From Limonium bicolor (taxonomy: Eukaryota > Streptophyta > Magnoliopsida > Caryophyllales > Plumbaginaceae), in NCBI GenBank assembly GCA_023374045.1, contig CM041777.1, forward strand, positions 478,059,594 through 478,123,593: a stretch of DNA of 64,000 nucleotides, in the 5' to 3' direction. The notes under the pieces are model-generated. The model was not told where the DNA came from and did no database searches. It was given only the letters and a program-made list of their open reading frames with translations. Of the stretch, positions 5,932 to 62,937 are shown piece by piece. Position numbers and translations under genes: made by a program. Position 1 is the first letter of the stretch. Each line of letters opens with the position of its first letter.

Positions 5932-6187
5932 TTGATAAGTCAGGAATTTGTCTAAGTTTACTAGACTAATTCATGCTTAATTTTCTACATTATGACATTA
6001 ACTTTCCTCTTTAATGCTTTAATTACTCTTCATTGTTATATTTGTCTCCAATGATTGATTTCATATGTTTTCAGGATAAATTACTCAACAAAGTGCTTAA
6101 ATGAAGATTTTAGAGGTTAGAGCAACATGGGAAGTCAAACCAGAGTCAAATACAGATTTTCATTCATCACTGTTGCACTTTATAGAG

Positions 6188-6436
6188 GGTCCGGGTTTGC
6201 ATCTGGGTTTATAAACCCGGATCCCCTCGTCGCAGAACATTCTGCCTAATTTCAGGCTTGTTCCGGGTTTGAGGAATGGTTTGAAACCCGGAACATACCA
6301 GGGCGAGACTTTCTGCCTCAAAATTCATATGTTCCGGGTTTGCATGTTGGTTTGCAACCCGGACCACAAGACCGGAGAAGCTACTGCCTCAATTTTCATA
6401 TGTTCCGGGTTTGCATATGGGTTTTAAACCCGGAAC
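6188..6436 (+). repeat. Tandem CCGGGTTT hairpin array, 4 units of about 71 bp
   Basis: Four units start near 6188, 6260, 6331 and 6401. Each has TCCGGGTTT, a loop of about 8-12 bases often containing GCAT or GGTTT, then the complement AAACCCGGA. Units are joined by spacers carrying TTCTGCCT or CTACTGCCTC, and two spacers end TTTTCATAT or ATTCATAT just before the next hairpin. The array ends about 125 bases before the TATA box. The same unit occurs in the unrelated LTRs at 18267, 49671 and 60442. Confidence 0.85.
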
Positions 6437-6561
6437 ATCACCAGCGGAGCGCGGAGTTCTGTTTCGAATTAACGGAATTAATGTATATCTTTAGTGGCCG
6501 TCGTTTAATGAGGCTTATTAGAGATAGATTTGAGAGGGAGAAAAGATAGAATTCCTTTTGT

Positions 6562-6570
6562 TATAAAAAG
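6562..6570 (+). promoter_or_regulatory. Probable TATA box of the E2 LTR
   Basis: TATAAAAAG lies 630 bases into the LTR, about 125 bases after the hairpin array. It suits the U3 promoter that would drive the element's genomic RNA. Confidence 0.5.
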
Positions 6571-7471
6571 AGGAGGCCAGCCAACGAAAAGGGGACGTCT
6601 TGGAACACACAAAATCCCCACAGTACACATCTTGAGCGCACAGAATAATCACGATACAGAGAGAATTAGTTTGAGAGCTTGGAGTCTGGTTTGGAGTTTG
6701 GAGCAGAGCACAGAAAGGAGTTCACCACGGAGACTGAACAGAGTTTCTTCTTGTTCTCTATTACTAAGCTTATTGTAAACATGTCAATGGCTGAGTAGTT
6801 CCCTTAGATTTCGGTTTGCTATGTATCCCTAAATTGACTATTCCTGTTCCTTTGTGATTTAATGCAATTTAATTGAGTAAAGTTATTTTCCTTGCTTAAT
6901 TTCTTTAATCGTTATAATTTGGCCAATTATAAGGATTAGTATTTTGTTAGCTTATATGTGACGACTGCGGCTTTCAATTGAATTCAGGAAAATAACCGGT
7001 TAGTTTAGAGACGGTAATTCCTCTAAATAGCTAATTGACTAATAAACTAGATTGTTCTTAAGGCGGTTAGTAAACAGTGGGTTCGTAACGAGAGTTAGAA
7101 TTCGGTCTTTATTAACTAGTATTTGCTAAGCGGGAGACCGGAGGTAAATTATCTTAGTTCTAGGGTTTTACTCAGAATTATCTTTTAAATCACTTAGGGA
7201 TAGGAATCACGGATTTAGGGTGCAGTAGTAAACCGGGATCTTCTTCTCCAAATCAGTTTCACAACATTTATTTTTCCTGCTTATTATTGTTTCGCATGTC
7301 GTTTACAGTATTTAATTGTCATCAAATCAAACCCCAATTTCCTGTTTTATTTTAATTCGGTTAGTAAAGATTAAACTAGACACATCGCCTCCTCTGGTTC
7401 GATACTTAGGGATTACTCTCTATTAAAACTTGCTAGAATTGACCGGTACACTTGCCGTTAGGTTTTATCCC

Positions 7472-10400
7472 AACAGCAGCAAACCATTTAAGTTTTTGGC
7501 AGCTTGGTTTTCTCATCCTGACTTTAATAAAGCTGTTAGTCAAAACTGGAATCCTAGGTGTAACCTTAGCTCTTCCATTGATCATTTAGGCAGTTTCTTG
7601 AGGGGCTGGAACAAGGACGTCTTTGGCCATATTATTGGCAATAAAAGAAGATGTTTAGCTAGGCTTAGAGGGATTCAGAGGGCTATTGATGAGGGTAGAG
7701 GAAATCACCTCCGCGGTTTGGAAAAGAAAATTTCCAAAGACTTAGAAACTTGGTTGATTAGGGAAGAATCTCTTTGGTGCCAAAAGTCTAGAGATAGATG
7801 GATCAGTCGTGGTGATAGAAATACTTCTTACTTTCACACTAAAGTCAATATTAGAAGAAATAGAAACAGAGTGCACAAGCTTTTGGGTTGTGACGGGACT
7901 TGGGTCACTATTCCGGAGGAGCTTGGGAAGCTTTTTGTGAATCTTTTCTCATCAATTTAGGAAATCTGAACTTCCCCTTGAGCCCCTAAATTTTAATGAC
8001 TTTAAGCCTCTCTCTTTAGGAAACCTTGCTGAGTTAGATAGAGAGGTTGACCTTAGTGAGGTTAGATTTGCTCTTAAAGGTATGAAAGCTTTTAGTGCGC
8101 CGGGCAAGGATGGCTTTCCTGCTGGTTTTTATCAAAGTTTTTGGAATTTGGTGGGTACCAAAACTGTCCATTTTGTCAGAGAGGTTTTCCCTTCTCAAAA
8201 GCTTGACCCTAGCCTGAATGAAACAATTATTACCCTTATCCCTAAGCTGGGACACCCGACCTTGGTTAGTCAATTTCGCCCCATCTCCTTATGCAAAGTC
8301 CAATATAAGATCCTTGCTAAAACCATTGTTAATCGACTGAAACCTTTTATGCCCTTTTGGGTTTTTTGTTCCGGGCAGGAGTATTTTTGAGAATATTACT
8401 CTTGTCCAAGAAGCTATTTATTGTATTCAAAACTCCAAGGTTAAGGATGGTTTCGTGGCCATGAAGGTAGATCTTGCTAAAGCATATGACTGTTTGGCTT
8501 GGAATTTCATTAAAGAGACCCTTGAGTGCATCAGTATTCCGTCTAGACTTAAGAATGTAATCTTACAGTGCATTACTTCGGTCTCTTTCCAGATCAGTTG
8601 GAATGGAGTCCTTTCTGAGTCTGTTGCTGCTGGGAGGGGGATTAGGCAGGGGGATCCCCTTTCCCCTTTTATCTTTGTGCTGTGTATGGAAAGGTTCTCT
8701 CAGCTTATCCAAGCCAGGGTGGATAGAAAGGAGTGGCTTCCTCTTTCCTTAGGCAAGAAAGAAACATCCATTTCTCACTTATTTTTCGCAGATGACCTTG
8801 TTCTCTTTGGAAAGGCTACTCCCAACCAAGTTAGGACTATGCCTGTTTATCTTGAGGATTTTTGTAGGGCTTCGGGCCAGATTATCAATTTTAATAAATC
8901 GTCTATCATTATTTCTAAAATGTGAGTGTGGAAAGAGCCCGTATTCTGGAACTAGAATTGGGCATGCGGTCTACTAGGGACTTTGGGAAGTACTTGGGTG
9001 TTTATATCGGTCAGGGTAAGTCTAGTAAGCAAGCTGATAACTTAATTGTGGCAAAAATCCAAGATCAGTTATCAGGTTGGAAGCTAAAATCTCTATCCCT
9101 AGCTGGACGAATTTGTCTAGTCAAGAGTGCAATTTCTTCTATTCCGATCCATAATATGCATTGCAAATTACTTTCTGCCCGTGCTTGTGATAGTATTGAT
9201 CGCTTAAGTCGAAATTTCATTTGGGGTCATGAGTCGGGTAAAAAAAGCTTTCATGATGTTGGATGGGATAGAATCTGTATGCCAAAAAATGAGGGGGGTC
9301 TTGGCATAAGAAAGACTAGAATAATGAATAGAGCATGCTTTGGCAAATTAGTGTGGAACTTGGTCTCAAACCCCAGCAGTTTATGTTTGAGGCTGTTGCG
9401 AAATAGGTATCCTAACCCTAACATTAATAGATGCTCCCCGATCTGGAAAGGAGTTCAGAGGTGTTCTGAGATTGTTGAGTTAGGGGCCCGGTGGATAGTA
9501 AGTAATGGTTCCCGAATTAATTTTTGGTCTGATTTTTGGGCTGTCCAGCCGTGCTTATCTTATTGGAAATGTTCTGAGATTCCTGAGGAGTTTTTGCAGG
9601 AAAACATTGCTAGTTATTGGTCGCAAAATTTTGGTTGGAAGTGGGAGAAAATTTCTCCTTTTCTTCCGCCTGAGGTTTGCAACAAAATCAAGAATTTTAA
9701 GGTTTTCCCTGATAGCAGTCCTGATTATATCTCTTGGATGTATGATCCGAATGGTAACTATAGTGTTAGCTCTGCTTATCTATTGTTGTCTGGTTTCTCT
9801 AATCATGCTAACAGTTTGAGGAACATTTTTCCTTTCAAGAAGGTTTGGAAATTGAAAGTGCAGGAAAGAAAAAAGGTGTTCATGTGGAGAGTCTGTCTTG
9901 GGAGAATCATGACCAATTCCAGGCGATTTAAAATGGGTTTCTCTCATGATAGCGCCTGCTATTTTCGCTGCCAGGAAGAGACTATTTTGCATGTCTTGAG
10001 AGACTGCCCTATTGCTAAGAAGATTTGGAAGAAGTTTCTTATGCCAAACTGTTTATGCGATTTTTTTAGCAAGGATCTGCATGTTTGGCTCTCTGATAAT
10101 ATCGGTAATTCAGCCAGTTTTATGTATAATGATGTAGAGAAGCTTTCTTTCCTATTGTATGTTACATGCTGTGGAACTAGAGAAACTCCAAGATCTTTAG
10201 TAAGGAAATAAGGAGGTTCCTACCGGTTACAATGATTACTTTGGCTATGTTTCAAAACAGAAGAGTGCGGCTGTTGAGTCTTGAATCAGATTGCATGGAG
10301 TCCAGCCGTCAATCAGCTAGGGGAGTATCTTGCTGGACACGACCTAATTTAAATTGCTTTAAATTCAATATTGATGGTGCTCTAAATTCTTCTTCTGGTT

Positions 10401-16670: not shown

Positions 16671-18266
16671 CATGAGACTTTGGAAATGAATTACGAATGG
16701 TGAGCTTATATTGTGTTCTAATGATAAATTGTCAGGGCTATCTTGATAGTCTCTGTAACACTCCATCTCTAACAGTCGTGATTATCGCATAAACCATTTA
16801 ACACATATATTAAAATCGTAGCGGAATTCTTTACATTACCCAGCACCTTGCTACGGTCTGACTACAAAATACACCGAACTTAAATATTTACAACACTTAT
16901 CCGAAAATACTGACCGAGTTTCAAGTATTCTCAAAGTCTAACAAGTTTCTACAACTCCAATATCAACATACGGGTGTACATGCACAATCCGTACTCAAAA
17001 TAAACCCCTCCTAAGTCTACCCGCTCCTACTCTCGAGGTGGGTCTTCTGAGGCCTCTTTCCTGCAAAATTAATATGGTTGCCCCAAGGGGCTCAGCACCT
17101 TCACTGGTACGATTAACTTATAGCCCCAAGCTAACGGGGCTACGGTGAGTACTTGTCGATAGCATGCGGTTGATTATTAATACAACATAAATAAGAAGTA
17201 CAATAAACACCACATCACATATGAACAAATCATAGTTCAAACACAATGAACGACTTAAAAGCGTTCCTTAAGTAAGTGAGTTAGATTTTAACTCCTTAAG
17301 TCTATACTTCTCTTATTCTCATATCCACTCTTATCTCCATGTACCAACCTTTCTTTAATTAGAATTGGTTGTTTCTTATCTCAATGTTTATCTTTGTCGG
17401 GTCAAAAGTAACCCTAGCCAATGAGCTATTAACTCCACTGGTTAAATAAACAACTTATCTTAAATTTGGGATTTAGGTGATCCCACCGCACCATCTTAAT
17501 CTGGCCTCCCACCTTGAACTGTATTCCAAGGTGGTCGAGTCTATATGTCGACTCTAGGCGACAAGTCAAAGACGAGTCTCAACGGAAGTCGGATCTGATT
17601 CAGATACCGACCCCCTTTTCCTTAACATGCATGACCGGAGTCAGTCCCGGATTCCTCACACCCCCCAAGTTCCAGTTAATTGAAGTCTCAAAGACGAAAA
17701 TGTTAGTTAAACCTTTCATGGGTATTAACCAACCAATATAAGAGAGGGTGTTCTTACTCATACCATTATTACTAAGCATCGTTAGTAAATAATCGCAAAG
17801 TCAAGTGTGTTAGTACAATGCAAACACACAAGGGCACAATATTCCGGTTGCATGCTTTATCTTGTTTTAGTCGGAACACATAAACAAATAGCACACAAGC
17901 CGAGGGACACCTCGTTAGCAAGCAGGCTACAAGAAAACCATATGGTTCACCGTCGGTTGTCGTTTGTCTACTCCTCTCTGGAATCCAAATATTCAAATCC
18001 TATAATATTCATCCAATCAGGTGGTTAATTACTTTTAATTAACTTATCTTAACTAATCACTAATGATTCCCGATTAATAAACACTACGTCATCGTAGTTT
18101 AAACTTAATCTCATAAGTCATTTACTTCTCATTATTTCTTAAGCTTGTTTATGCCCCTAATGACCATTATATGTCATTAATTATATCCTAACTATCTTAT
18201 AATATCATTACCAAACAAGTCCCAACCTTAAAACCCCATTTTCAACATTCTGTAGCTTGTTTTGGT

Positions 18267-18447
18267 TGGTCCAGGTTTGTGTCCGAGGTTGTAAACCTGG
18301 ACCAACTCATCGGATGACTTTCTGCCATGTTTTGGGACTGGTCCGGGTTTGTGTACCGGGATGTAAACCCAGACCATCCCACGGTATAACTCACTACCTT
18401 GTTTTTGGTGTGGTCCGGGTTTATGTACTTGTTTACAAACCCGGACC
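18267..18447 (+). repeat. CCGGGTTT hairpin array in LTR A, 3 units of about 72 bp
   Basis: Hairpins start near 18267, 18340 and 18412. Each reads GGTCCGGGTTTGTGTAC or similar, then a loop, then TAAACCCGGACC. The first spacer contains GACTTTCTGCC, sharing the 10-mer ACTTTCTGCC with an E2 spacer (6308-6317). Small open frames through it encode repeated KPGP words and are by-products of the repeat. Confidence 0.85.
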
Positions 18448-20825
18448 AACACTAAATGTGTCCAGAATGATAATTTTTGACATCTTTTCAACCTCAATTC
18501 TTACCCAATCTTTTCCTAACCTTTCCACAAGTATCCTAGCATGTTTTAACATCATTTTGGCACCTTAAAATCCTCCTAATTCATCCACCAAACTCATACT
18601 CAATTCCTTGATCATTCACTCAAGTCCTTACAAATTCCTAACACTTATACTTAGTTCCTTACACTTCCAACATGTAAACTTTGCATAAAACCTCAACTAA
18701 CCAAAGTGTTTCTTCACAACCATTTTGACCACTCCTCAAGCATCCTTATCCATTCCCATTTCCTTTACTCAAACTTCCCAAGGTTTTATTCTCTAGTTCA
18801 TACCTAAGTCATTACAAGACATAATACCTCATTTACTACCAAACTTTGCACGAGTCTTAACACCTCTCATTCCATGATTTTGTTGTGTCTAACTCACCCT
18901 CTTAATTCCTTAAATCCTCCAAGACAATTCCTAGGTCATTCAAATCCTCAAGCACACCTTAGCTTATTCCTTTCCACCAACTTAACCATTAATGATTCCT
19001 AGTACAACCTAGGTCATAATATTTCATTAGAACACTTAAAACTCTTAGTTTCTTCACCAAATTTTGACATAGCTTCCCTAGTATATTCTTATACCCAAAC
19101 ACTTACGTTTTCATCCTTAAACAACCAAGAACACTCAATCTTCAATAAATATTCTCTACACACAAACTACACTCAAACTACACCAAATCATATAGTGCAT
19201 AAACTTAAATTGCTTGCCACTTAGGCCCTTAAATGACTTGGATCTTAGGACCTTAATTGACATAAATTTAACCACTGAATTTCCCATAATTAATAGCCTT
19301 CAACCTGTAATTACACCCATCAATCTCATAGTAGTTATACATGTGCTTGTAGTCCACCTTATAGTTGTTTTACTAACTCAATTCCCATTAGCTCTTTAGT
19401 CACAAGTTTACAAATATGATCATGTTGTTTTTCCTAGGTTTTATAGTTCATTATATAATGTAAGCTCTAAGCTACATTTAGTATCTATCTAAACCCCATC
19501 CCTTAAAGCATTAAACCACCTTAAGGTAAGTAATTTACCTTGTTTTTCTCAAGCTTTTCTCACTTTCCTCCTTGGTTTTCTTGATTGATTCTCGGCCAAG
19601 GACTTTTGTTCTCTTGCCAATCTTCTAATCAACATTAACATAATCTAATGAGTACTAAGGAACATGCCTAAACTCATAGAATTTACTCTTAGGTTAAAAA
19701 GAGTGCTTTAAGCCTTAAAAATGGATGATTACCTTTGAAGTCTCAAGATAGACTTAGGTAATGAATCAAGAAGGACCTTCACTAGTCCTTTGATATTAAA
19801 ACAATCTATTTCAAGGAGTAAAAACAAGACTCCATGAGAGGAAATTTTTGAACATTAAGAAAAATGGAAGGAACTTGATTGTTCTTTCACTTTCCTTACC
19901 TTGAATGCAAGGAGATGAAATGGAGCTCTTAAAACTTAATTTTCCCCCTTCAATGGAGCTTATCCATAGCATCAAACTTGAGCTTTTGAAGTTTTGAAAA
20001 GATAGGATTGAAGGGCATGCTCCAACTAAGAATAGTCTAAGCTTAGTTTTTTTATTTGAAGCAATATTGTGTATTTGGTGAGCAAGACAAGGTGGAGAAA
20101 GGATGGAGCTGCAACTTACGGTTTTATTTAGAGGAAGAAGAAGAAGAATACAGTGGAAGAAGAAGATATGAAAAGAAGAGAGGTGAGATGTAACGCCCCT
20201 ATTTAAACAAATACAGCGGAATAAAACTCTAAAGGCGATTACAGATCATCGGGTTCCAAACACCCGGTACAAAACCTCACCAATACTACTTACTAATGTT
20301 ACAGTCTGAACTCGAGAAAACGATGTAAACGTAACTTAAAATAAACAAAGCAACTCTCCACAATTCCTAGTTCCCATCCCAATCACTCATACTCTTCGTG
20401 GCCACCTGTATGAGCAATTTTGTACCTGCAAGATGAAACCAAGCAGCCCACCCCGGGAGGGGTGAGTCAGTTCCCTGGAATGGAACTGGTACAATTCTCC
20501 AAAACAATATTTAAAACATAACTCTTCAAAATAACCAGTAACTTGAAATCAAACTCTTGAAAGTAAAACAGGGAAACAAGGCACTTTAAGATCACCAAGT
20601 CAAAGATAACAAGTTAAGGATAGAGATAATTAATAGAAAGGTAAAGTTAGTCAATCCAAAAATCACACCATGAGTTAGTGAACATCCAATGCTCAAGTTA
20701 GAGCCAATTCCAGTTAGGAGTAGAGAGACCCAGGTAGTCACAAGGACTAGGAATGAAAGAAGATATCCAAGAACCAACAACTCAAGAGTGGAATAAAACC
20801 AATTGGGAGAGATGGCCCCCACCGC

Positions 20826-20966
20826 CAGATATCAATGTCCTTATGGACGAGGGATATACAGCCCCCTGCTGTCAAATATAAATGTCCTGGTGGACGAGGG
20901 ATATACAGCCCCCTGCTGTCTGATATAAATGCCCTTATGGACGAGGGATATACAGCCCCCTGCTGT
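20826..20966. repeat. Three 47-bp tandem repeats in LTR B
   Basis: The unit is AGATATCAATGTCCTTATGG / ACGAGGGATATACAGCCCCC / TGCTGTC. GGGATATACAGCCCCCTGCTGT recurs at 20851, 20898 and 20945, nearly identical. It lies about 650 bases inside the LTR, towards its transcriptional 3' end. Confidence 0.85.
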
Positions 20967-23449
20967 TACCGACCCGTTCTCAGTCATCGGTGAAGACGCG
21001 CGCACGTCATAACAAAAGACTCAGCTCATGGATGAAACAATATCCAGAGTCAAAGGAAGAATTACCAAGATTGTCCTTTTCCATACTTCCACTAGATCAC
21101 TAACTACACCAGAGCAATACCAAAACACTCAGTCCTACATAGTGTAGAAGCGTAAACCCTAGGCAGTTAATGTCTAATGAAATAACCCAATAGAAGGAAC
21201 CAAAAACCATGTAAGTTTCACATTCAAGGCTCAGTTAGTCACATCAAGCTGAGTTAGCCACACAAACAGTTCCCTTTGAAATCCATTCAAGCTCAGTTAG
21301 CGTTTTCCAAAACATTCCATAAAGTCCGTTAGCGAAAGTATCCGAGTACGAGAAATCGTACCTGGATAACGCTGTAGCAGTTCTAATCAACTTGCGCAAA
21401 CAATCAACAGTACTCTGAAGAATATTAAAGGTAGTCTATCATCAATCACTTGTAGCCTACGTTAAGCTTAAATAAATTCCTCTCTCTTATTTCTAAATCC
21501 CAATCATCTTGTAAGCCCTCGCTTAAATGTTATGTATAATCTTTGGGTTATCTGAGAATGGTGTATAGCCCAAGGTGGTAAGATCAAGGAATGTATTCTA
21601 TTAACATTTGCTAATTGTCCACTCCTATCCACTTTATTCGTACTTAACCACAATCCTCATATTCAAGACTTTTGAGACCTTTATATCATAAATGTGTTTT
21701 ATATTATATAATCAATCTTAGAATTCCAATGATAAACTTAAGCTCAATACTTTTATTATTAATTTAGAATAAACATTGTATTATGACCTATGATGGATTC
21801 ATCTCATAATACTATACTATTATTTCACACTGTAATGATTACGTATTTTATCAATATTTACTAGATAATCAATTGTGATTAAGTCTTTCCCTTAACTTAA
21901 TTAAGATCTACATCTTGTATATTGGAATCATAGTGTTGTAGACGCATTTTATTATAACTTAATTGAGCCACTAAACTCAATTATCATATCCTTAGTTCAG
22001 AATGACTTCCTACTGTAACCGTCTAATAATCTTGTCACAAGATGTTGAATTACCTCTCATATTGAAATAACTATATTATTATTAACTTAGACTTATCAAA
22101 CTCTTACATTTAGTATTTACAAGATATATTATTTATTTTATCATTAACTATATAATAAGTTGTTTTAAGATAACCTTTTATGTATCCTTGCTTACATTTA
22201 ATTTCCTAAATGTTTTATTTTTACACACATTCCCTCCATAGACTATGTATAATCCTTTTATACTAAACCTCAATAAACTTAAGTCTTAAATACGTTTTAA
22301 ATTATTTACAAAACCTAGGGTTTCAAAGGAGTAACGTAATAAATTATTTTCCTTTATTATGTTTTAGGATAAACATTATATCTTAGCATAAGGTAAAATT
22401 TATCTAAGAATTAAATCCCCATTCATAAGTGAAATTGCCAATTATTTAATAAGATCATCTATTCTGAAAATTCTCATATTTTATATTCAAATAACGTATC
22501 ATTATTTCCCATTACCGTAAAGTATATCAATATAATATCTTATGTAACTTAGTTTTATCTAATAAAAGGTTCAAATGTTTTATTTATCAAATTCCTATTT
22601 ACAAACCTTTCTATAAATTCTAACTACTAAATACCTCACTTAGTTGTAAACTCACATCCTAAGTATTGGTAATAAATGTTATAAATGTATTTCATATGGC
22701 TTATCTAATGCTAAGAAACTTAAGGATTATTATTTAGATAAATTTCCAAATCATAGTTTAATATAGTTTTATATCTAATCCTTTTATTGATTTTATCTTA
22801 AAACATTAGGTCATTATTCAATACAATAAATGTTATGAAACGATTAAACCTAGACTTACTAATCCACTTCACATTTAGATGTAAAAGTATTTCATTTATT
22901 TATTAATTATATAGTAAGTTCTATTTGTGTAAAATCTAATTACAAATATTCCTAAGTCCCAACTTATTAATTACCTAACCAAATTATAGATTTACATTCT
23001 GGTCTTTGACAAATGATATTACACATGTATTTTAATATGGTTTATATAAATCTTAGAAATTCAAGATAACACCTTAAGCTTAATTTCATAACCACAATTC
23101 AATACTACCTCATATAGTATTATGTATGGGTTTAGTTTAACTTATTAATTCCTTCATATTCTATTTGCTATAAGGTATTTTATTTCTTTTATTTATTTAT
23201 TTATTTATCGTATATGTATACTAGGATTTGTTCTAGACATTATTTATGTAGTTCTATTGCATTTAATTATTTATATTAACTTTTACATATATCTACATCC
23301 AAAATATGGTTTATAAAATAAAGTATTTTCCTTAGTTTCAATTAAGTATATTAACTACCATATTATATAATTAATATAAATGTAGATTAATTTAGTTCCT
23401 TGATTTAACCTAGGTTACTATTTTATTCTTTTATATATATGTACATATA

Positions 23450-23454
23450 TATAT

Positions 23455-23492
<38 letters not shown>
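23450..23492. repeat. (TA)n microsatellite
   Basis: An almost pure TA run in LTR B, preceded by a looser ATATATGTACATATATATAG stretch. Confidence 0.9.
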
Positions 23493-23495
<3 letters not shown>

Positions 23496-24007
23496 CTTCA
23501 CTTAAAATTTTATACCCAAAAATATTTATTAACATTCTGTATTAAATGTTAGTTTAGTCTTATTATATTTTCCCCAACCTATAAAGTTTATTAATCAGAT
23601 ATACTTTAATTTTTGGTTACATTAAAAACCTTATATTATAAGGTAACTTATGAAAAACCTTAGAAATACAATTTTTAAACCTATTTCATCCTGTCCAAAA
23701 TTCCCAAATTAAGTATATAGTAACTATAACATTTTAGACATATTATAAAATTTTTATTTCATAAAAATATCTTTTTAAATTTTCCAAATAATTCCATAAT
23801 ACTCATAACTTGCAAAAATTATAAATTACGTTTAAAAACTCAAAACCCATATTCATATACATCAAAATAAACTAGATTTTATCAGGAATCTATGGTTAAA
23901 ATTTCAAGTCAAAACACATTCGGGAAGGTATTTAAATTAATTCAACAAGTTAGGGTTTAATTCTGGAATTAATAAAAACTTAATATACTTAAATCTTATA
24001 CGTTTTA

Positions 24008-24053
24008 ATCTCGGCCGTCCGTTTCTTTTAACTACGATCGGACGGCCCGAGAT
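24008..24053. other. GC-rich inverted repeat in LTR B
   Basis: ATCTCGGCCGTCCG (24008-24021) pairs with CGGACGGCCCGAGAT (24039-24053) with one unpaired G, leaving a loop of 17 bases. It stands out in a very AT-rich LTR and sits where AT-rich DNA changes to more balanced, possibly transcribed sequence (24050-25000). Its role is unknown; a promoter or terminator element is possible. Confidence 0.6.
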
Positions 24054-26242
24054 CCCCGAGTTCATCAGCGAGGAACACAGTAGTGTCAAGTACTAAATTG
24101 ATCTTTTCTCTCAACTCACAGAACCAAATTCGTTGATTCTTGTTCCATTGGATTCGAAATTGAAAAACGAATCCATTGACACCGATTTCTCCACATATCA
24201 TGCAGTATTCTGCAAGATCGCTTCTGGGTTCGAGGAGGTTATGGTTTATGTTAATTCGAATCTTAATTTGCCAAATTCTCTTAGTATAACGCATAATAGG
24301 TGAAATTAGGACATGAGTTTGACCGATAATGTAAAGGCGAATGACAATAACGGGACAATTTGATCGGAAACTCACCGGAGAAGCAACAACGGGGGAAATC
24401 GAATTTGATGTTCTGGAAAAATTCGAACTTTACGAGTTGTAAAGTAGCCAACTTTGCAACACTATAAGTTTCGGTACGGATCGATTTAGGCTTTGTTCTT
24501 GGGCTTAATTTAAAGAGGAAACTTAACTCTACATATTGATAACAAGAACTCACTCTAACTCGCAACACACAAGGAGAAATCTAACCCGAAAGTTACGAGT
24601 CTATACCTGCGGTTTCTGTATGATTTTATGCAATGGTGAATCGAGATCTTTAGACGTCTCGCTCTCCCAATCGGTTATGAATCAGCCTTGGTCTTCAGCA
24701 CGAAAGTTGTAAAAGGATTAAAGAACTACACAACGAGCTATAGAAATCGAATTTTGGTTGAAAGATTAGGGAGTTATGGCAAGATGAATTTTACCTGAAA
24801 TCGAAGGAAACTAGAAATCTGCGTTTTCGGTTTCGCAGGGTGGCTACTTTGGATCGAAATTCCGGTTGATGTATGATGATCTAGGTTTAGTGTGAGTTAT
24901 GGTTGTAAAGAGGCAGTGTAGGAGAAGACAACAAAGAAGACGGCACTCAAAAACTCTCAAAGATGAGTGAGATATAGCCGTCTAAAGTTAGGGCAAAATC
25001 ACATAAGTCTGTTCCGATTTTTAAGCTAAGTGTGGGTGGCCTGTGACCGATTGACACGTGGCAGGTTTCAAAATTTTGACTATAAACTTCATTCCATCAT
25101 AACTTTGGCTAGGATGATCTGTTTTTTACGTTCTTTTTATCGATCTTCATGGTTTTCTATAACCTATTTATTGGTATAGGTTTCATGGGCTAGTTTGACC
25201 ATTCTCAAAAAGTCAACCCTAGCAAGGCTTGAGAAGCTTTAGGGTTCCATAATTTTATTTTGACTTTTATGAGTCAAATTAATGTCCAAATTATTTCTAA
25301 AATCTTTATAATATACTTGGAGTGTTTAGAAATTTTCCCAAGATTTATTGAATTATAAATCTTATTATTAAATTTATAATACTGTATAATAATATATAAT
25401 AATTTAATACTTAATAGTATTCTTTAGGGTTAAATAGAAGAAATCCCCTAAATTAATTTCCATAATTCCACATAATATTAATATTCATAATTCCATACAA
25501 TACTTTAATATTAAATAGTATTAATTAAGGTTTAACAAAATAAATCCCCTAAATTAATTTAAATTAATTAAGGGGTATTTCATGAGAGGTGAGCTAATAT
25601 GAGATATTTCCTTAAAAAGGTGAATAGTAGTTTTACTTACTTTCTCTCTTCTTTTCTGATTTTGCTGGAGCCTATGGTGACTCATAACCTTCAAAACCGG
25701 CCCCCCTTCATTCTCTAGATATTTTTAGGCTAGTTTGACCACTTAACTAATTAAAGTTTACTAAAGCCTTAATTGAGCACTATTTGGCCACTATTCATAA
25801 TTAGTGCACAAATTTGTGAAATTTTTGGTTCCTCATTGATTTTGGCTTCCTAATGTGATACTAAGTAGTACACATGTTGATTAAGGTATAATATTGGTCA
25901 TTTAGCCACTCAAAACCCCTTTCTAAGATAATTTCTCAAAAATGTGCTTTAAGACTCCTTAAAGCTCAATTTGTGTTTTAACTTGTTTTTGAGCTTGGTT
26001 TTCTTTGGTATCTGATTTAACATGTCCATTAGCATGTTAATAAGGTCTAAAAATAACCTTTGGGTCCTAATCAAGCTTACACCAAGTCTAGAGCATGTTT
26101 TTGCTTAAATTGACTTTATGGTGTTTCCTTGTGTTTTCTTTGGTTTAAATTGTTTACTAATATTTATAAGTCATGTTCTAGCCTTATTATATCTTAGTTT
26201 AACATCTAATCACGATATCTAGGTTTGGGGTATTTCAGTCTC

Positions 26243-38559: not shown

Positions 38560-38935
38560 CTGAACATAAAAGAAAACTTTGTACAGATGGTCATACAAAC
38601 CTGTACAAATGTTCACTAAAATATGTACATCATCACATAAAAACATGTACATTAAAAACATACAGAAGGTCACACAAACCTGTACGAATCACTAAATATG
38701 TATATTCTTAGATTAAAACCTGTACATATTAGAAAGAACACTTGTACATACAGTCATACAAACATGTATAGACGGTCATACAAACATGTACAGGTGTTCA
38801 TTAAAACATATACATTCTCATAATTGAAAATGTACATTCTCACATTTGAACATGTACATCGTCACATTAAAACATGTACATTCTCACATTAAAATATGTA
38901 CATACGTCCTCACATTAAAGTATAGAACGGCTTCC
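38560..38935. repeat. TGTACAT-type minisatellite, partly duplicated at 39400-39525
   Basis: Variants of ACATGTACATTCTCACATTA recur about every 20-30 bases. The last 110 bases reappear nearly unchanged at 39415-39525, after the 180-bp repeats, so the repeats sit between two copies of it. Confidence 0.75.
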
Positions 38936-47942: not shown

Positions 47943-48744
47943 TGTAACACCCCTACCATTAATACAATGCTTACCGTCCAATCTCCTTACACATCAGATA
48001 CACGCAGCGGATACATACTTACATAATGTGGGTGATACAATGCCGTTAGTCACCCACGTGACTAACAAGGCTACTGCTACTACATACAGCATCGGTCTGA
48101 TGGACCGGAATCCCGAGTGTTACATACCTACCATACACACTCCGTATACCAATAAATGCTACAATCTTCCATTCGATACAATACTTTAAATACAATACAA
48201 TATAATCCACATACCGAGTTTACTAAGATCCTTATACAAATATAATACCTCTTCCAAATTCATATCTACAACTACCCATTCCTCACAAACTACTTACTTC
48301 CTAAGTACAAGGCTGTACCACTTAGTACACCCCTACATCCTACTTCTACTATCCGAATGTAGCCACCGGTCTCTTACCTTGACCATATCCGCTTCGGGTA
48401 CCTGCACACTAAAAACGTTCCCCCTAGGGGGTCAGCTTTCGCTGCGCATGATAACCGCATACCCCGCGTACTAGTGAGGGTACGCCGACCACTTGGTCGA
48501 ATACATGCAGTTCATTTTCATACAAACATACATGCATACATGCTCTTATACACAATATTACAATACATTACGCAAGACATACACACATACATACACTTCA
48601 TTACATACCAGAAGTACAACATAAACCATCCAATACATACTTACCTTTTTCCGAATTACACATACACATTACATACACAATATACAATACTTGTTAGCTT
48701 CATTGTCCACCCGGGTTAATCGGGTGGAGATTACTCTTTTACTC

Positions 48745-48825
48745 GTTACTCCATACATACGCATACATACTCATACTCATACTCATACTCATACATACTT
48801 ACTTACTCTTACTCTTACTCATGTT
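48745..48825. repeat. ACTCAT/CATA microsatellite, length differs between the LARD LTRs
   Basis: CATACTCATACTCATACTCA runs here. The right LTR (59538-59585) has fewer units, so the run has expanded or contracted since the element inserted. Confidence 0.85.
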
Positions 48826-49670
48826 AAGTCGTCGGGACCTCCGGCCCTGGGGACTACTTCCCCCTCCGGGATTTACTTGACTCACCAATCCGGGATGCTA
48901 CCCATTTAAGGGATTTGGGCCGCGGACCAGTTTAAGAGTCAGGAATTGCAGCCAACCTCTTGTGACTCCGCATCCTCACGCGTGGCCGAAGCTATATCGG
49001 ACTTCTACTCATTCCAATTTACTCACTTAAGTTAGGAGTTAGGTAGTTAGGAATTAGCAGAAGTCATTCATGCAAGCCACATACACAATTACAATGCTCA
49101 ATACTCATTTATACAAAATACAATACAACACTTAAGTACAATACACGATTCGAATACAAGTCATCATCATTCATATATTTCATGAATTATACAAACTATT
49201 GTTCAAGACAAATATCAAGAACAATGTAAACAAGCACGAGTAAGTGCAATATAATCCGATTCGTGCATTTATCTTATTAGGTGGTCAAATAAGCACACAA
49301 ATCGGGGTAACCAGATTAGGATACAGGGCATGAAGAAATCATACCTTTCACCGTTGACTTTGGACTCACCGACTCCCTTCGGTGTTCAACTATTTGAATC
49401 CTATCACATACATACAGTTGGATGGTTAATCATCCATAATTAACCTTACTTATTACCTTCCAAAAGTTTCCTAGTTCATACTTACTAACTCTTTGTTACT
49501 TAATTACATTTACTTAAGTTATTTACTTACAATTATTTTCTAAGCTTGTTTATAGCCTTAATGACCATTAAACATCATTAGTTATGTCTTAATCATCTTA
49601 TACAATCATTACCCATCCTTACCCTACCTTAGAATAGCTTTAACACACATTCTGGAAGAATTTTTAGTAG

Positions 49671-49982
49671 TGTCCGGGTTTACAAACCCGGACCATAGTG
49701 CTTGGTCAGTCTCGGGTGGAATTTAAGTGTGGTCCGGGTTTAGGGCTGGGTTTACAAACCCGGACCATGCAGTTGCAGTACTCTCGGGTGTAAATTTTGG
49801 GTGGTCCGGGTTTAGGGGTTGGTTTGCAAACCCGGACCATTCCTTTGCAAAACTCTCGGGTGTATTTTAGGGGTGGTCCGGGTTTAGGTCTTGGTTTGCA
49901 AACCCGGACCATCCATTCTGAAATACCTTCTGCTGTTTTTTTGACATGTCCGGGTTTGTGTACTTGTTTACAAACCCGGACA
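49671..49982 (+). repeat. CCGGGTTT hairpin array, 5 units, in the left LARD LTR
   Basis: Hairpins start near 49671, 49731, 49803, 49875 and 49948, mostly 72 bases apart. Each reads GGTCCGGGTTTAGG or TGTCCGGGTTT, a loop, then CAAACCCGGACC. Spacers of three units carry CTCGGGTG; the last has ACCTTCTGCTG, close to the TTTCTGCC spacer of E2 and LTR A. The first unit has lost its loop and is an almost perfect palindrome. Confidence 0.9.
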
Positions 49983-52161
49983 AGTTACAATATTGTAAAA
50001 TATATATGTTTTTGATTATGTTTCAACTCCAAACTTCTACCAATCTCTTCCCCCATATTCCTACATATAATCTAGCGTGTTTTGATCTTAATTAAGCAAT
50101 CAAAACTAGCCTAATCCATCTCCATACCAATCTGTTACAAACCACCTTCCACTGTCAATTTTCCTCTGTTACAGTTGTTCTTTCTTCCACATATGTTACA
50201 GATTTTTACTCTATTCTTTCCAATAATATTGTGGCTCTTTCATTGCCTCATTTACATTATACTCAACCTAAGTCTTACTCAGTACAATGCTCTTTTCACT
50301 AACTCCTACCTACTAATTCTTCCTTGTTTCTCCAACACATTTCAATACTCTTTGCTACAAATTTTAGATCTTTTCATTCTCTTACCACAACTACTACTCC
50401 TTAGTTACCAAATCATCTCTACTAAATCCCAATACACACCTTGGTTCTCCCATTCACCAAGTCATTCTTAATGCACAATTCCTACTAAAATTTCGCCATA
50501 GTTCACCTACAATTTCTACTTATCCTCATCCACACTTTTTCACCAAAATCATCCCTATTCTAGCCACACCCTTACAAGGGTCCTACCAGCATTCAAAACA
50601 TTATCTCAATACATCAATACTCCATCAATTATAATACCAATACATCATTACTTCCTCAATCCACCATACTAATTCACATACACAATTTATTTGGCTCTAA
50701 GGCCTACAATCCCAATACAAACTCATAAATACTCAAACTTCCACAAACCACGATACTAATACAATAGTTTAGGTTATTTATTTGTTCACCCATTCCCATT
50801 ACTCTAATGCATTAAAATATAGCATTGATAAAGAGCTCTTACCTTTAAGCTCTTATTTCCTCTTCCTTTTCTATTCCTTCTTCTCTCTTTCTTGTACAAT
50901 CGGTCACATGGGGAATGGAGTTGCCAAACTCCATTCCCATCACCCAATACACACAAAATAAGTGCAATTAATATACTAACCCTTGATTTATACTAATCCT
51001 TTGAAATGTTCAAAACACAAATTCTAGGGTTTACCTTTGGAGTGTTTTAGGAGGGGTTTTAGCCCTTGGTTTGAGAAGGTGATTCCACCACCATTGCAAG
51101 TTTGAGATTATGCTCAAAAGAGAGAGAGAAAACAAGGCATTACATAGGGGTAAAAATCGGTTATGAAAGTAAATGGTGAGAACATGAGTTTTTCATGTAG
51201 ATTTTTACCTTAATGGAGAGAGGAGACTCCAAGCTACACATTAATGCCATTTTCTTCACCAATGGGGTTTACCCACGAAAATGAACTTCCTCATTTTTGG
51301 ATTTTGAAAAGAGGGAAGTGTAGAAAATGATGAGGGGAGTTCAAATATGTAATTTGTTTTTGATTTGGAGCTTGCATGTGGCTAGAGCAAGAGGATGAAG
51401 AGGGCTGCCATGGAAGCTTGTGGAGAGCTTCAAAAATCGCCAGATGCAGAGGGGAGAAAGAGAGGAGGTCGGCTGGGTGAGAAAAACGGAAGAGAGAGAG
51501 TAGAGAATGAGAGAGTGAGGTGAGAGAAAAGGTTAAAGCACTTTTCTACTTTTTCTATTTTACATTTTGGTTCCCTTTACTTATTAGCTAGTTACATGTG
51601 TGTGTGAGGGTTATTTGACCCATTAAAAATCGGCCCCACACATTACTACTAGTTGGAGCGTTTTTCGTCTTTTACAGAAAATGCTCGTTATTTTACCCGG
51701 TTTCGGTACTATTCACTAACCGGGCCCGTTTTCCGGAATTTTCTCGTCTCTTTATTTTTATTGGTTATTAAGCTTTCGTTAATGCTTAATTATTGTTTTT
51801 TGATGAATTATAATTTTTACGGGTTCGTTTGACCACTTAGAGTCACGTTTTCGGGTTTTCTCGAAAAACGTACACTAAAGCTCTATTAGCGTTTTAATAC
51901 ATTATTTGGATCCGTTTTCTTCGGGAGTTGTTCCCATCTATTATTTAGGCCTTATTAAGGCTTTAGAATCCATATAATATGCTAACCGAGGTCTCATACC
52001 TCCTATGGTTATTTAACACTTATTTAGCGTTTTTCGCTTTTTAAGCGTTTCTTTATTTCTTTGGATTTATTTTTCCTTACCAAAATTACTTAGGCACCAT
52101 TAAGCCATTAAATACCTATTAGGATCATTTTAATCACTATATTTAAGGTCGGGGTATTTCA

Positions 52162-57852: not shown

Positions 57853-58421
57853 CTTTTTGTAACACCCCTACCATTAATACAATGCTTACCGTCCAATCTC
57901 CTTACACATCAGATACACGCAGCGGATACATACTTACATAATGTGGGTGATACAATGTCGTTAGTCACCCACGTGACTAACAAGGCTACTGCTACTACAT
58001 ACAGCATCGGTCTGATGGACCGGAATCCCGAGTGTTACATACCTACCATACACACTCCGTATAGCAATAAATGCTACAATCTTCCATTCGATACAATACT
58101 TTAAATACAATACAATATAATCCACATACCGAGTTTACTAAGATCCTTATACAAATATAATACCTCTTCCAAATTCATATCTACAACTACCCATTCCTCA
58201 CAAACTACTTACTTCCTAAGTACAAGGCTGTACCACTTAGTACACCCCTACATCCTACTTCTACTATCCGAATGTAGCCACCGGTCTCTTACCTTGACCA
58301 TATCCGCTTCGGGTACCTGCACACTAAAAGCGTTCCCCCTAGGGGGTCAGCTTTCGCTGCGCATGATAACCGCATACCCCGCGTACTAGTGAGGGTACGC
58401 CGACCACTTGGTCGAATACAT

Positions 58422-59284
58422 TAGGGGTGGCAATTCGGGTTAATGGGTCGGGTTGAAGTTCACCCATACCCGACCCGATTAAAATTGTATTGACCCATAC
58501 CCGACCCAATAATAATCGGGTTACAAATTATCAACCCATACCCGACCCATATAAAATGATCAAACCCATACCCGACCCGTATAACCCAACATAATTAGGC
58601 TATGCAAAATTTAAAAGACCTGGAATTAAATTTTGTATATGGTTGCTCAAAGGGAGTTACAAATGAATGAAATCTTACATTCAATATGGTAGATATTCCA
58701 GAGTTTTCATTATCCTCCGTATTTTTTCTTTTTCCACATACATGTCGTGCTCAGTAGCACTTAACAGAAGAAGATGATGTGTACGCGCCTGGGCCAAATA
58801 TAACTGTATTTTCTCCTTCAGAATATAGAATCAAAACATAGACAAAAATCTTCAGAGTACAGAAGAGATAGGACCACAGTGGGAGCTGTGGAGGAGAGAG
58901 CAGCACACTGTCTTTTGACAATCCACATAACGAATACTCTTGTTTTTGCTTTATAAAGAAATACAACAAAGTAATATTATCAAATAAACAACCTCTCATC
59001 AAAAAATACTACATAATCTATATTATACTAATAGTAGGTTAGCACTTAGTATTATATTTATATTTTTATCTAATTATTTATTTATTATTATTTTTAATAA
59101 AATAAAATAAACGGGTCGGGTTGACTACGGGTTAGGACTTTGAACCCATACCCAACCCAAAAATTTAATAGGTAACCCATACCCGACCCAATAATTAAAT
59201 GGGTCAATAATCATGACCCAAACCCACTATTTTCGGGTTGGGTATAGGTCGGGTTATCGGGTTGAATAACAATTGCCACCCCTA
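58422..59284. mobile_element. hAT-like non-autonomous element (863 bp) in the LARD 5' LTR
   Basis: Perfect 14-bp inverted ends TAGGGGTGGCAATT / AATTGCCACCCCTA, flanked by the 8-bp duplication GAATACAT (58414-58421 and 59285-59292). The other LTR shows the empty site, with a single GAATACAT. Both ends carry several subterminal CCCATACCCGACCC words or their complements, typical of hAT transposase binding regions. The middle (about 58600-59030) includes an 83-codon minus-strand frame (59002-58751) that I do not recognise. No transposase. Confidence 0.9.
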
Positions 59285-60441
59285 GAATACATGCAGTTCA
59301 TTTTCATACAAACATACATGCATACATGCTCTTATACACAATATTACAATACATTACGCAAGACATACACACATACATACACTTCATTACATACTAGAAG
59401 TACAACATAAACCATCCAATACATACTTACCTTTTTCCGAATTACACATACACATTACATACACAATATACAATACTTGGTAGCTTCATTGGTCCACCCG
59501 GGTTAATCGGGTGGAGATTACTCTTTTACTCGTTACTCCATACATACGCATACATACTCATACATACTTACTTACTCTTACTCTTACTCATGTTAAGTCG
59601 TCGGGACCTCCGGCACTGGGGACTACTCCGTCCCACCTCCGGGATTTACTTGACTCACCAATCCGGGATGCTACCCATTTAAGGGATTTGGGCCGCGGAC
59701 CAGTTTAAGAGTCAGGAATTGCAGCCAACCTCTTGTGACTCCGCATCCTCACGCGTGGCCGAAGCTATATCGGACTTTTACTCATTCCAATTTACTCACT
59801 TAAGTTAGGAGTTAGGTAGTTAGGAATTAGCAGAAGTCATTCATGCAAGCCACATACACAATTACAATGCTCAATACTCATTTATACAAAATACAATACA
59901 ACACTTAAGTACAATACACGATTCGAATACAAGTCATCATCATTCATATATTTCATGAATTATACAAACTATTGTTCAAGACAAATATCAAGAACAATGT
60001 AAACAAGCACGAGTAAGTGCAATATAATCCGATTCGTGCATTTATCTTATTAGGTGGTCAAATAAGCACACAAATCGGGGTAACCAGATTAGGATACAGG
60101 GCATGAAGAAATCATACCTTTCACCGTTGACTTTGGACTCACCGACTCCCTTCGGTGTTCAACTATTTGAATCCTATCACATACATACAGTTGGATGGTT
60201 AATCATCCATAATTAACCTTACTTATTACCTTCCAAAAGTTTCCTAGTTCATACTTACTAACTCTTTGTTACTTAATTACATTTACTTAAGTTATTTACT
60301 TACAATTATTTTCTAAGCTTGTTTATAGCCTTAATGACCATTAAACATCATTAGTTATGTCTTAATCATCTTATACAATCATTACCCATCCTTACCCTAC
60401 CTTAGAATAGCTTTAACACACATTCTGGAAGAATTTTAGTA

Positions 60442-60757
60442 GTGTCCGGGTTTACAAACCCGGACCATAGTGCTTGGTCAGTCTCGGGTGGAATTTAAGT
60501 GTGGTCCGAGTTTAGGGCTGGGTTTACAAACCCGGACCATGCAGTTGCAGTACTCTCGGGTGTAAATTTTGGGTGGTCCGGGTTTAGGGGTTGGTTTGCA
60601 AACCCGGACCATTCCTTTGCAAAACTCTCGGGTGTATTTTAGGGGTGGTCCGGGTTTAGGTCTTGGTTTGCAAACCCGGACCATCCATTCTGAAATACCT
60701 TCTGCCGTGTTTTTTGACATGTCTGGGTTTGTGTACTTGTTTACAAACCCGGACAAG
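60442..60757 (+). repeat. CCGGGTTT hairpin array in the right LARD LTR, 5 units
   Basis: It is the counterpart of 49671-49982. The second unit reads GGTCCGAGTTT and the fifth ATGTCTGGGTTT where the left copy has CCGGG. Confidence 0.9.
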
Positions 60758-62937
60758 TTACAATATTGTAAAATATATATGTTTTTTATTATGTTTCAAC
60801 TCCAAACTTCTACCAATCTCTTCCCCCATATTCCTACATATAATCTAGGGTGTTTTGATCTTAATTAAGCAATCAAAACTAGCCTAATCCATCTCCATAC
60901 CAATCTGTTACAAACCACCTTCCACTGTCAATTTTCCTCTGTTATAGTTGTTCTTTCTTCCACATATGTTACAGATTTTTCCTCTATTCTTTCCACTAAT
61001 ACTGTGGCTCTTTCATTGCCTCATTTACATTATACTCAACCTAAGTCTTACTCAGTACATTGCTCTTTTCACTAACTCCTACCTACTAATTCTTCCTTGT
61101 TTCTCCAACACATTTCAATACTCTTTGCTACAAATTTTAGATCTTTTCATTCTCTTACCACAACTACTACTCCTTAGTTACCAAATCATCTCTACTAAAT
61201 CCCAATACACACCTTGGTTCTCCCATTCACCAAGTCATTCTTAATGCACAATTCCTACTAAAATTTCGCCATAGTTCACCTACAATTTCTACTTATCCTC
61301 ATCCACACTTTTTCACCAAAATCATCCCTATTCTATCTACACCCTTACAAGGGTCCTACCAGCATTCAAAACATTATCTCAATACATCAATACTCCATCA
61401 ATTATGATACCAATACATCATTACTTCCTCAATCCACCATACTAATTCACATACACAATTTATTTGGCTCTAAGGCCTACAATCCCAATACAAACTCGTA
61501 AATACTCAAACTTCCACAAACCATGATACTAATACAATAGTTTAGGTTCTTTATTTTTTCACCCATTCCCATTACTCTAATGCATTAAAATATAGCATTG
61601 AGAAAGAGCTCTTACCTTTAAGCTCTTATTTCCTCTTCCTTTACTATTCCTTCTTCTCTCTTTCTTGTACAATCGGTCACATGGGGAATGGAGTTGCCAA
61701 ACTCCATTCCCATCACCCAATACACAAAATAAGTGCAATTAATATACTAACCCTAGATTTATACTAATCCTTTGAAATGTTCAAAACACAAATTCTAGGG
61801 TTTACCTTTGGAGTGTTTTAGGAGGGGTTTTAGCCCTTGGTTTGAGAAGGTGATTCCACCACCATTGCAAGTTTGAGATTATGCTCAAAAGAGAGAGAGA
61901 AAACAAGGCATTACATAGGGGTAAAAATCGGTTATGAAAGTAAATGGTGAGAACATGAGTTTTTCATGTAGATTTTTACCTTAATGGAGAGAGGAGACTC
62001 CAAGCTACACATTAATGCCATTTTCTTCACCAATGGGGTTTACCCACGAAAATGAACTTCCTCATTTTTGGATTTTGAAAAGAGGGAAGTGTAGAAAATG
62101 ATGAGGGGAGTTCAAATATGTAATTTGTTTTTGATTTGGAGCTTGCATGTGGCTAGAGCAAGAGGATGAAGAGGGCTGCCATGGAAGCTTGTGGAGAGCT
62201 TTAAAAATCGCCAGATGCAGAGGGGAGAAAGAGAGGAGGTCGGCTGGGTGAGAAAAATGGAAGAGAGAGAGTAGAGAATGAGAGAGTGAGGTGAGAGAAA
62301 AGGTTAAAGCACTTTTCTACTTTTTCTATTTTACATTTTGGTTCCCTTTACTTATTAGCTAGTTACATGTGTGTGTGAGGGTTATTTGACCCATTAAAAA
62401 TCGGCCCCACACATTACTACTAGTTGGAGCGTTTTTCGTCTTTTACAGAAAATGCTCGTTATTTTACCCGGTTTCGGTACTATTCACTAACCTGGCCCGT
62501 TTTCCGGAATTTTCTCGTCTCTTTATTTTCATTGGTTATTAAGCTTTCGTTAATGCTTAATTATTGTTTTTTGATGAATTATAATTTTTACGGGTTCGTT
62601 TGACCACTTAGAGTCACGTTTTCGGGTTTTCTCGAAAAACGTACACTAAAGCTCTATTAGCGTTTTAATACATTATTTGGATCCGTTTTCTTCGGGAGTT
62701 GTTCCCATCTATTATTTAGGCCTTATTAAGGCTTTAGAATCCATATAATATGCTAACCGAGGTCTCATACCTCCTATGGTTATTTAACACTTATTTAGCG
62801 TTTTTCGCTTTTTAAGCGTTTCTTTATTTCTTTGGATTTATTTTTCCTTACCAAAATTACTTAGGCACCATTAAGCCCTTAAATACATATTAGGATCATT
62901 TTAATCACTATATTTAAGGTCGGGGTATTTCAATATC

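What the first reader, a model, noticed from the sequence alone, without database searches (positions are those of the whole stretch)
6188..6436. A 72-bp hairpin cassette shared by unrelated LTR families, in opposite orientations
Seen: tandem units of CCGGGTTT-loop-AAACCCGG with a period of 70-73 bp occur in the LTR of E2 (4 units), solo LTR A (18267-18447, 3 units) and both LARD LTRs (49671-49982, 60442-60757, 5 units). Spacers also match: ACTTTCTGCC is identical in E2 and A, and ACCTTCTGC occurs in the LARD. E2 is an Athila/Tat-type element (Asp primer site in its relative E1); A and the LARD belong to a Met-primed lineage. The rest of their LTRs look unrelated. E2 lies on the plus strand and A and the LARD on the minus, yet the spacer reads the same way on the plus strand in all, so the cassette is inverted relative to transcription. 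Inference: a transferable U3 module, perhaps a regulatory or structural element gained independently or moved by recombination between elements. E1 has a different hairpin cluster in the same U3 position.
Basis: partly seen in the sequence, partly recalled or inferred. Interest (0 to 1): 0.78.

Follow-up and report, generated by a model that had tools for sequence, protein, structure and literature searches.

The report
Shared hairpin cassette in unrelated retrotransposons
Two seemingly unrelated kinds of plant jumping gene carry the same 72-base tandem hairpin cassette in their control regions, reading opposite ways relative to each element's own direction, which suggests that a ready-made control module was passed between them.

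Summary
The window has 17 hairpin units: E2 (4), solo LTR A (3), and the two near-identical LTRs of the LARD (5 each). The likeness is more than shared palindromes. With stem bases set aside, a profile of E2's spacers ranks A's two spacers 1st and 2nd of 127,258 positions on both strands; LARD spacers rank 165 to 14,081. E2 arrays match A and the LARD plus-to-plus only (0 of 1000 shuffles). E2's flanks are not detectably related to theirs, while A and the LARD are homologous left of the array. E2 is read on plus, A and the LARD on minus, so the module is inverted relative to transcription. Ordinary template switching does not explain that; it points to DNA-level transfer or an inversion. Stem arms stay 89-95% identical, spacers 41-55%. 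Best reading: a laterally acquired, orientation-free array of palindromic protein-binding sites beside the promoter; the binding function is inferred. Only one E2 LTR is in the window and no plant genome could be searched (13 requests unanswered), so spread across families is untested.

The parts
5933..7475 (+). 3' LTR of E2 (right end tentative), read on plus
   Evidence: purine-rich tract then TGATAAGT; protease-like ORF 4254-4610 on plus, RVP_2 E 0.0033, 17.7 bits against a cut-off of 20.3
6186..6438 (+). E2 hairpin array, 4 units; a degenerate spacer-like stretch may follow to about 6475
   Evidence: array GC 0.49 against 0.36 in the rest of the LTR
16754..26237 (-). Solo LTR A, interrupted by nested solo LTR B (20189-25582)
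   Evidence: TG..CA ends, TSD GTCTC; B TSD TGAGA
18266..18449 (+). Array of solo LTR A, 3 units; cassette reads on plus although the LTR is on minus
47943..52161 (-). 3' LTR of the LARD
   Evidence: 98.4 and 99.5% identical to the other LTR over the two aligned parts; TSD ATATC
49669..49984 (+). Array in the LARD 3' LTR, 5 units (the first has a 2-nt loop)
57858..62932 (-). 5' LTR of the LARD, with about 0.86 kb extra near 58421-59285; tRNA-Met-type PBS at 57842-57852
60441..60757 (+). Array in the LARD 5' LTR, 5 units
6562..6567 (+). Candidate TATA box of E2, about 124 bp downstream of its array
   Evidence: TATAWA scan; consensus match only
49549..49554 (-). Candidate TATA box of the LARD LTR, about 115 bp downstream of its array in the sense direction
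   Evidence: TATAWA scan; consensus match only, not found at the matching place in A

Best explanation
A promoter-proximal array of palindromic sites, about seven DNA turns apart, sits in the U3 part of two LTR lineages that look unrelated: a Met-primed lineage (A, LARD) and E2, probably Athila-type. Shown: the arrays are homologous in stem, loop and spacer; the surrounding LTR sequence of E2 is not detectably related; the arrays read oppositely relative to transcription. Inferred: the module entered at least one lineage sideways, at the DNA level (or was inverted in place using its own inverted-repeat arms), because RNA template switching between two sense genomes would keep its sense. Inferred: it works as a cluster of dimeric protein-binding sites (an enhancer), which needs no fixed orientation, so either direction is kept.
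For: Homology beyond the stems in one orientation only: E2 vs A score 70 against a null maximum of 49, E2 vs LARD 89 against 75, 0 of 1000 shuffles each; reverse complement reached by 81 and 687 of 1000. In-register spacer identity 19.6 of 42 forward (null 13.9 +/- 0.9, 0 of 5000), 12.6 reversed. A hairpin model from 9 A and LARD units scores 4 of 4 E2 hairpins higher on plus. An E2-trained spacer profile ranks A's spacers 1 and 2 of 127,258. Natural null: 15 prokaryote loci with a CCGGGTTT hairpin followed by a further arm score at most 27 against these arrays. 16 comparisons of E2 flanks with A/LARD flanks: none does better than 5 of 100 shuffles; A vs LARD left flank 145 vs 22.5 +/- 2.8. 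E2-A spacer distance (16-21 of 42) is no greater than A-LARD (15-23). Arms 0.89-0.95, loops 0.49-0.67, spacers 0.41-0.55 identical. Nine of nine internal spacers are 42 nt although they differ at many places; the A-LARD flank has 8 gap events per 70 substitutions. Changes on both sides at 4 of 12 stem pairs, 0 of 500 shuffles, 0-2 in slid controls. E2 and LARD arrays lie about 124 and 115 bp upstream of a TATA-like motif.
Against: No expression, binding or methylation data. TATAWA motifs occur at 0.6-1.5 per kb in these LTRs, and A lacks one at the matching place. Symmetric stem changes can also arise by hairpin template-switch correction, that in A_1 could be two CpG losses, and shuffle counts overstate them for related units. 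Some units deviate: E2_3 has two broken pairs, A_2, right-LTR unit 2 and the outermost pair of the last LARD unit one each. Two of four LARD spacers are poorly recognised by the E2 profile (ranks 4224 and 14081). Spacer distances near 40-50% are close to saturation and the unit tree is weakly supported, so the timing argument is soft. Only one E2 LTR is seen.
Confidence: 0.45

Rival explanations
1. The array is a passenger: short palindromic tandem DNA captured separately by two LTR lineages from a common genomic source, with stems kept perfect by hairpin template-switch correction and by exchange between units, and no function.
For: CCGGGTTT hairpins in series with other spacers also occur in unrelated prokaryotes. 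Unit number varies (3, 4, 5) and one LARD unit is 12 bp shorter.
Against: All 17 units in the window are inside LTRs and the next model hit has E 0.032. Spacer length is fixed at 42 nt although spacers differ at about half of their positions.
Confidence: 0.22
2. The array in E2 is a private event: a piece of a Met-lineage LTR, or converted sequence, placed into this one E2 copy after insertion, so E2's family does not carry it.
For: Only one E2 LTR is in the window. Plus-to-plus likeness to A and LARD is what a minus-oriented fragment would give.
Against: No significant A- or LARD-like sequence beside the array in E2 (the two nearest, E2 right flank against the left flanks of LARD and A on plus, are reached by 5 and 7 of 100 shuffles), although A and LARD share about 268 bp there. 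E2 units have their own stem version, TGTTCC..GGAACA in 2 of 4.
Confidence: 0.15
3. The hairpins act in RNA: U3 lies near the 3' end of the genomic transcript, where a row of stems could affect stability, export or packaging, or feed small-RNA production.
For: Strong single-strand folds: z -4.8 (E2), -8.3 (LARD sense strand), 0 of 100 shuffles each. Symmetric stem changes. Stems survive inversion.
Against: Any long palindrome folds well; in the E2 minimum-energy fold units 3 and 4 pair with each other. Fixed 42-nt spacers are not obviously needed for an RNA role.
Confidence: 0.13
4. Deep common descent: the array was in the ancestor of both lineages and was inverted once; the rest of the LTRs has diverged beyond recognition.
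For: Both may be Ty3/gypsy types (E2 by recall; LARD only if its Met primer marks a chromovirus), and stems are strongly conserved.
Against: E2 spacers are as close to A's as A's are to the LARD's, although A and LARD are still alignable in their left flanks and E2 is not.
Confidence: 0.05

Closest known systems
Tandem U3 repeats acting as enhancers in LTR elements (tobacco Tnt1; retroviral U3 repeats)
   Same: Tandem repeats in the U3 part of the LTR; [quoted passage not shown]
   Different: Here the units are long palindromes and the same unit is in two lineages in opposite sense; function untested.
Template-switch recombinants between LTR retrotransposons (Onsen; BARE2 and VejuL)
   Same: Sequence exchange that yields mosaic elements; passages seen of PMC5668417 and PMC1950507.
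   Different: Those are ascribed to switching between two co-packaged RNAs, the Onsen case within one family, which keeps sense (my inference). Here the lineages look unrelated and sense is reversed.
[quoted passage not shown]
   Same: Tandem arrays carried inside plant LTR elements (PMC11963269, passages incl. part of the abstract).
   Different: Those repeats are internal and described as family-specific; here they are in the LTR and shared.
Bacterial REP-type palindromes
   Same: Regularly spaced hairpins; CCGGGTTT stems occur in series in a Desulfobacterales MAG and in cyanobacteria.
   Different: No spacer or outer-stem similarity (scores at most 27); the REP name is by analogy, from a search listing.

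Membership tests
LTR with tandem U3 enhancer repeats | Repeat array inside the LTR, upstream of the core promoter | tested here: inconclusive
   Inside LTRs. TATA-like motif 115-124 bp downstream in E2 and LARD, not in A; transcription start unknown.
LTR with tandem U3 enhancer repeats | Repeats bind protein or raise transcription | not testable with these tools
   No binding or expression data.
LARD | Long LTRs, TSD, PBS and purine-rich tract, no coding domains inside | tested here: met
   LTRs of 4.2 and 5.1 kb, TSD ATATC, Met-type PBS. Pfam: none of the 8 sense-strand internal ORFs of 60 aa or more matched (list); of 23 on the other strand 5 were given, one with a sub-threshold DUF match.
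Chromovirus (Met-primed Ty3/gypsy) for A and LARD | tRNA-Met primer site | tested here: met
   LARD PBS matches TGGTATCAGAG (tRNA label recalled). PMC6317226 (passages): Met used by most chromoviruses and by Ty1/copia lineages, not by non-chromoviruses. Copia is not excluded; A has no PBS (solo LTR).
Chromovirus (Met-primed Ty3/gypsy) for A and LARD | Reverse transcriptase and chromodomain integrase | not testable with these tools
   A is a solo LTR and the LARD shows no coding domain; no autonomous relative could be fetched.
Athila-type for E2 | Non-Met primer and Athila gag-pol | tested here: inconclusive
   E2's PBS is not in the window. RVP_2 below cut-off; gag-like ORF search without hits; terminus TGATAAGT shared with E1, whose primer site reads as Asp-type (label recalled). 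Athila label by recall.
Template-switch recombinant LTR | Exchanged part keeps its sense relative to transcription | tested here: not met
   Cassette reads plus in E2 (plus element) and plus in A and LARD (minus elements).

The most novel reading that the evidence does not exclude
A portable, orientation-free promoter module: short palindromic units of fixed 72-bp pitch that spread between unrelated LTR families at the DNA level, multiply in place, and can flip through their own inverted-repeat arms, so that different retrotransposon lineages in one plant come under one host binding factor.
Probability: 0.3. Interest if true: 0.75.

Novelty: new variant of a known kind. Interest (0 to 1): 0.55.

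Why it matters
LTR control regions change faster than other parts of retrotransposons, and it is unclear how unrelated families come to answer the same host signals. A homologous module in two lineages, reversed in sense, would show that promoters of these elements evolve by taking up ready-made parts at the DNA level, not only by template switching inside one family. It can be checked directly in any assembly of this plant.

Tried and rejected
Convergence of GC-rich palindromes: rejected by shuffles that keep the arms, spacer-only tests and 15 natural unrelated loci. Homology of whole LTRs: rejected for E2 vs A/LARD (16 flank comparisons, the nearest to significance E2 right flank vs LARD and A left flanks on plus, 5 and 7 of 100 shuffles). 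Further copies in the window: none below E 0.032. Solo LTR B shows no BLAST match at E 0.01 to A, LARD or E2 LTR sequence. E1's cluster as a comparable array: weak.

Searches that led nowhere: array ORF against the protein database (439 candidates, none at E 0.001), E2 gag-like ORF (48 candidates, none), Rfam (none at gathering threshold), ARAGORN (none), plasmids (no match at 1e-5), viral contigs (60 stretches, none holding two such hairpins; 2 stretches, judged unlike ours by eye). The DNA collections among these are not ones of plants, so the blanks say little about spread. Literature: eight answered searches listed nothing that I recognised as this cassette; lists were cut at 25 of 56, 15 of 27 and 15 of 34, one search found no paper, and I read titles and abstract openings only, plus passages of six papers. 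That is not proof that it is unpublished.

First unit alignment put E2 right arms one base out of register and misplaced the first LARD unit; the hairpin-only alignment A2 replaced it for pair counts. In A2 the short first LARD unit has gaps in its left arm and is counted as gap. In one search the alignment step printed nothing, and one start there was a base off. One search shows A's spacers as 41 because I set two right arms a base off; one search gives 42. The change count (122 by Fitch, 96 by tree length) includes a tenth, degenerate E2 stretch after the array, whose length I set myself; nine internal spacers have measured length. In one search right-LTR unit 2 was left out of the identity table, and E2_1 and A_1 too because they have no preceding spacer. 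The full-window model was built from the units it finds; one search is the test without E2. In one search the profile was trained on all families; one search is the held-out version.

Full report
What is there. The window is AT-rich DNA (GC 0.357) with nested retroelements, plant-like by its elements (recalled judgement). Hairpins of the form CCGGGTTT-loop-AAACCCGG occur in tandem at 6186-6438 (four), 18266-18449 (three), 49669-49984 and 60441-60757 (five each). A covariance model of the units, run over both strands of all 64,000 bases, finds these 17, and its next hit has E 0.032. The typical unit is 72 bp: 8-bp core arms (12 bp with the outer bases), a 13- to 14-nt loop, and a spacer. All nine internal spacers of E2, A and the left LARD LTR are 42 nt. 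The first LARD unit is an exception with a 2-nt loop, so the first interval there is 60, and one spacer of the right LTR is 43.

Which elements carry them. The LARD runs from 47943 to 62932 on the minus strand: LTRs with TG..CA ends, TSD ATATC, a tRNA-Met-type primer site at 57842-57852, a purine-rich tract beside 52161. None of its 8 sense-strand internal ORFs of 60 aa or more has a Pfam domain. Solo LTR A spans 16754-26237 with TSD GTCTC and is split by another solo LTR, B (20189-25582, TSD TGAGA). A starts with TGTAACAC like the LARD LTR, its right end aligns to the LARD's over 31 bp (84%), and 268 bp left of the array align at 70%, so it too is on minus. E2 is on plus: a protease-like ORF at 4254-4610 (weak, below Pfam's cut-off), then a purine-rich tract and TGATAAGT at 5933. 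The neighbouring E1 (minus) starts its LTR with the same TGATAAGT and has what reads as an Asp-type primer site (label recalled). Neumann et al. (PMC6317226, passages seen) state that tRNA-Met is used by most chromoviruses and by Ty1/copia lineages and not by non-chromoviruses. So the two groups belong to different lineages, if E2 is like E1; E2's own primer site is not in the window.

Are the arrays homologous? I kept the arms fixed and shuffled the rest of E2: the observed local score against A (70) and against the LARD (89) was never reached in 1000 shuffles, while the reverse complement scored at about null level. Spacers compared in register give 19.6 of 42 identities forward against a null of 13.9 +/- 0.9 (0 of 5000) and 12.6 reversed. 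A profile of the three E2 spacers, stem bases excluded, ranks A's two spacers 1 and 2 of 127,258 positions over both strands; LARD spacers rank 165, 619, 4224 and 14081; the converse profile, from A and the LARD, ranks E2's spacers 2, 130 and 169 of 125,598; in all nine cases the reverse complement at the same place scores far lower. So A is clearly close to E2 and the LARD less so. A hairpin model built without E2 scores all four E2 hairpins higher on plus than on minus. As a natural control, the pattern of one such hairpin followed by a further left arm was sought in prokaryote genomes: 15 stretches, 10 from one Desulfobacterales MAG and 5 from cyanobacteria, align to these arrays with scores of at most 27. 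Hairpin series with this core can therefore arise independently; the spacer likeness seen here does not follow from that.

Outside the array E2 shows no significant likeness to A or the LARD: 16 comparisons, the strongest reached by 5 of 100 shuffles, the next by 7. A and the LARD are alignable on the left of the array (score 145, null 22.5 +/- 2.8) and barely on the right (35, null 27.4 +/- 3.3, 5 of 100). E2 spacers differ from A's at 16-21 of 42 positions; A's differ from the LARD's at 15-23; E2's from the LARD's at 19-30. The array in E2 is thus about as near a relative of A's array as the LARD's is. That fits a sideways transfer around the time when A and LARD lines parted better than descent from the common ancestor of both lineages, but such distances are near saturation, compare units that may be paralogous, and the unit trees are weakly supported.

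Orientation. In all three families the asymmetric parts (loop, spacer) read the same way on plus, whereas E2 is transcribed on plus and A and the LARD on minus. Exchange by template switching between two co-packaged RNAs, the known route (PMC5668417 and PMC1950507, passages seen), would keep the sense. So the transfer was at DNA level, or the array was flipped; arms that are inverted repeats of each other would allow such a flip. This step is inference.

Constraint. Across families arms are 0.89-0.95 identical, loops 0.49-0.58, spacers 0.41-0.54. Four of 12 stem pairs show changes on both sides, 0 of 500 shuffles, against 0-2 in slid controls. Those in E2_2, E2_4 and the last LARD unit are G-C to T-A exchanges, that in E2_1 T-A to G-C, while that in A_1 may be two CpG losses. 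Cells that break pairs are 6 of 156 (96.2% paired). Spacer length is fixed although the A-LARD flank has 8 gap events per 70 substitutions. 72 bp is about seven turns of DNA, which would put all palindromes on one face (inference). Both E2 and LARD arrays end 115-124 bp upstream of a TATA-like motif, but such motifs occur 0.6-1.5 times per kb there, and A has none at that place.

How it most likely works. Taken together I favour a promoter-proximal cluster of palindromic binding sites, indifferent to orientation (0.45; within that the homology and the reversed reading are well supported and the function is inferred). Candidate factors cannot be named from these tools. The rivals are a passenger array (0.22), a private event in this E2 copy (0.15), an RNA-level role (0.13) and deep descent (0.05).

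Limits. No plant collection was available, and search of the window's own genome was unanswered 13 times, so the distribution of the cassette is unknown. E2 contributes one LTR. The report rests on 17 units, 5 of them in a second LTR copy that is 98-99% identical to the first.

Noticed in passing
20189-25582: A 5.4-kb solo LTR (B) with TG..CA ends and TSD TGAGA sits inside solo LTR A; it gives no BLAST match to A or the LARD although its termini look alike, and it has a 47-bp tandem repeat at 20829-20966.
   Followed up: partly
38916-39393: A 179-bp tandem repeat carries a palindrome built of telomere-like GGGTTTAGGG/CCCTAAACCC; weak hits to the hairpin model, best E 0.034.
   Followed up: no
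49736-49745 and 49808-49817: LARD units 2 and 3 contain GGGTTTAGGG, a stretch of plant telomere-type repeat (label recalled), not seen in the E2 and A units.
   Followed up: no
58421-59285: The right LARD LTR has about 0.86 kb that the left one lacks, with 30-bp and 31-bp tandem repeats near its two ends.
   Followed up: no
8341-10639: LINE-like reverse transcriptase, zf-RVT and RVT_3 (RNase H-like) matches in separate ORFs on plus, about 0.9 kb right of E2's tentative LTR end.
   Followed up: no
L061-L075: CCGGGTTT hairpins in series in a Desulfobacterales MAG (10 of 15 stretches) and in cyanobacteria (5 of 15), apparently REP-like and unrelated to the plant cassette.
   Followed up: partly
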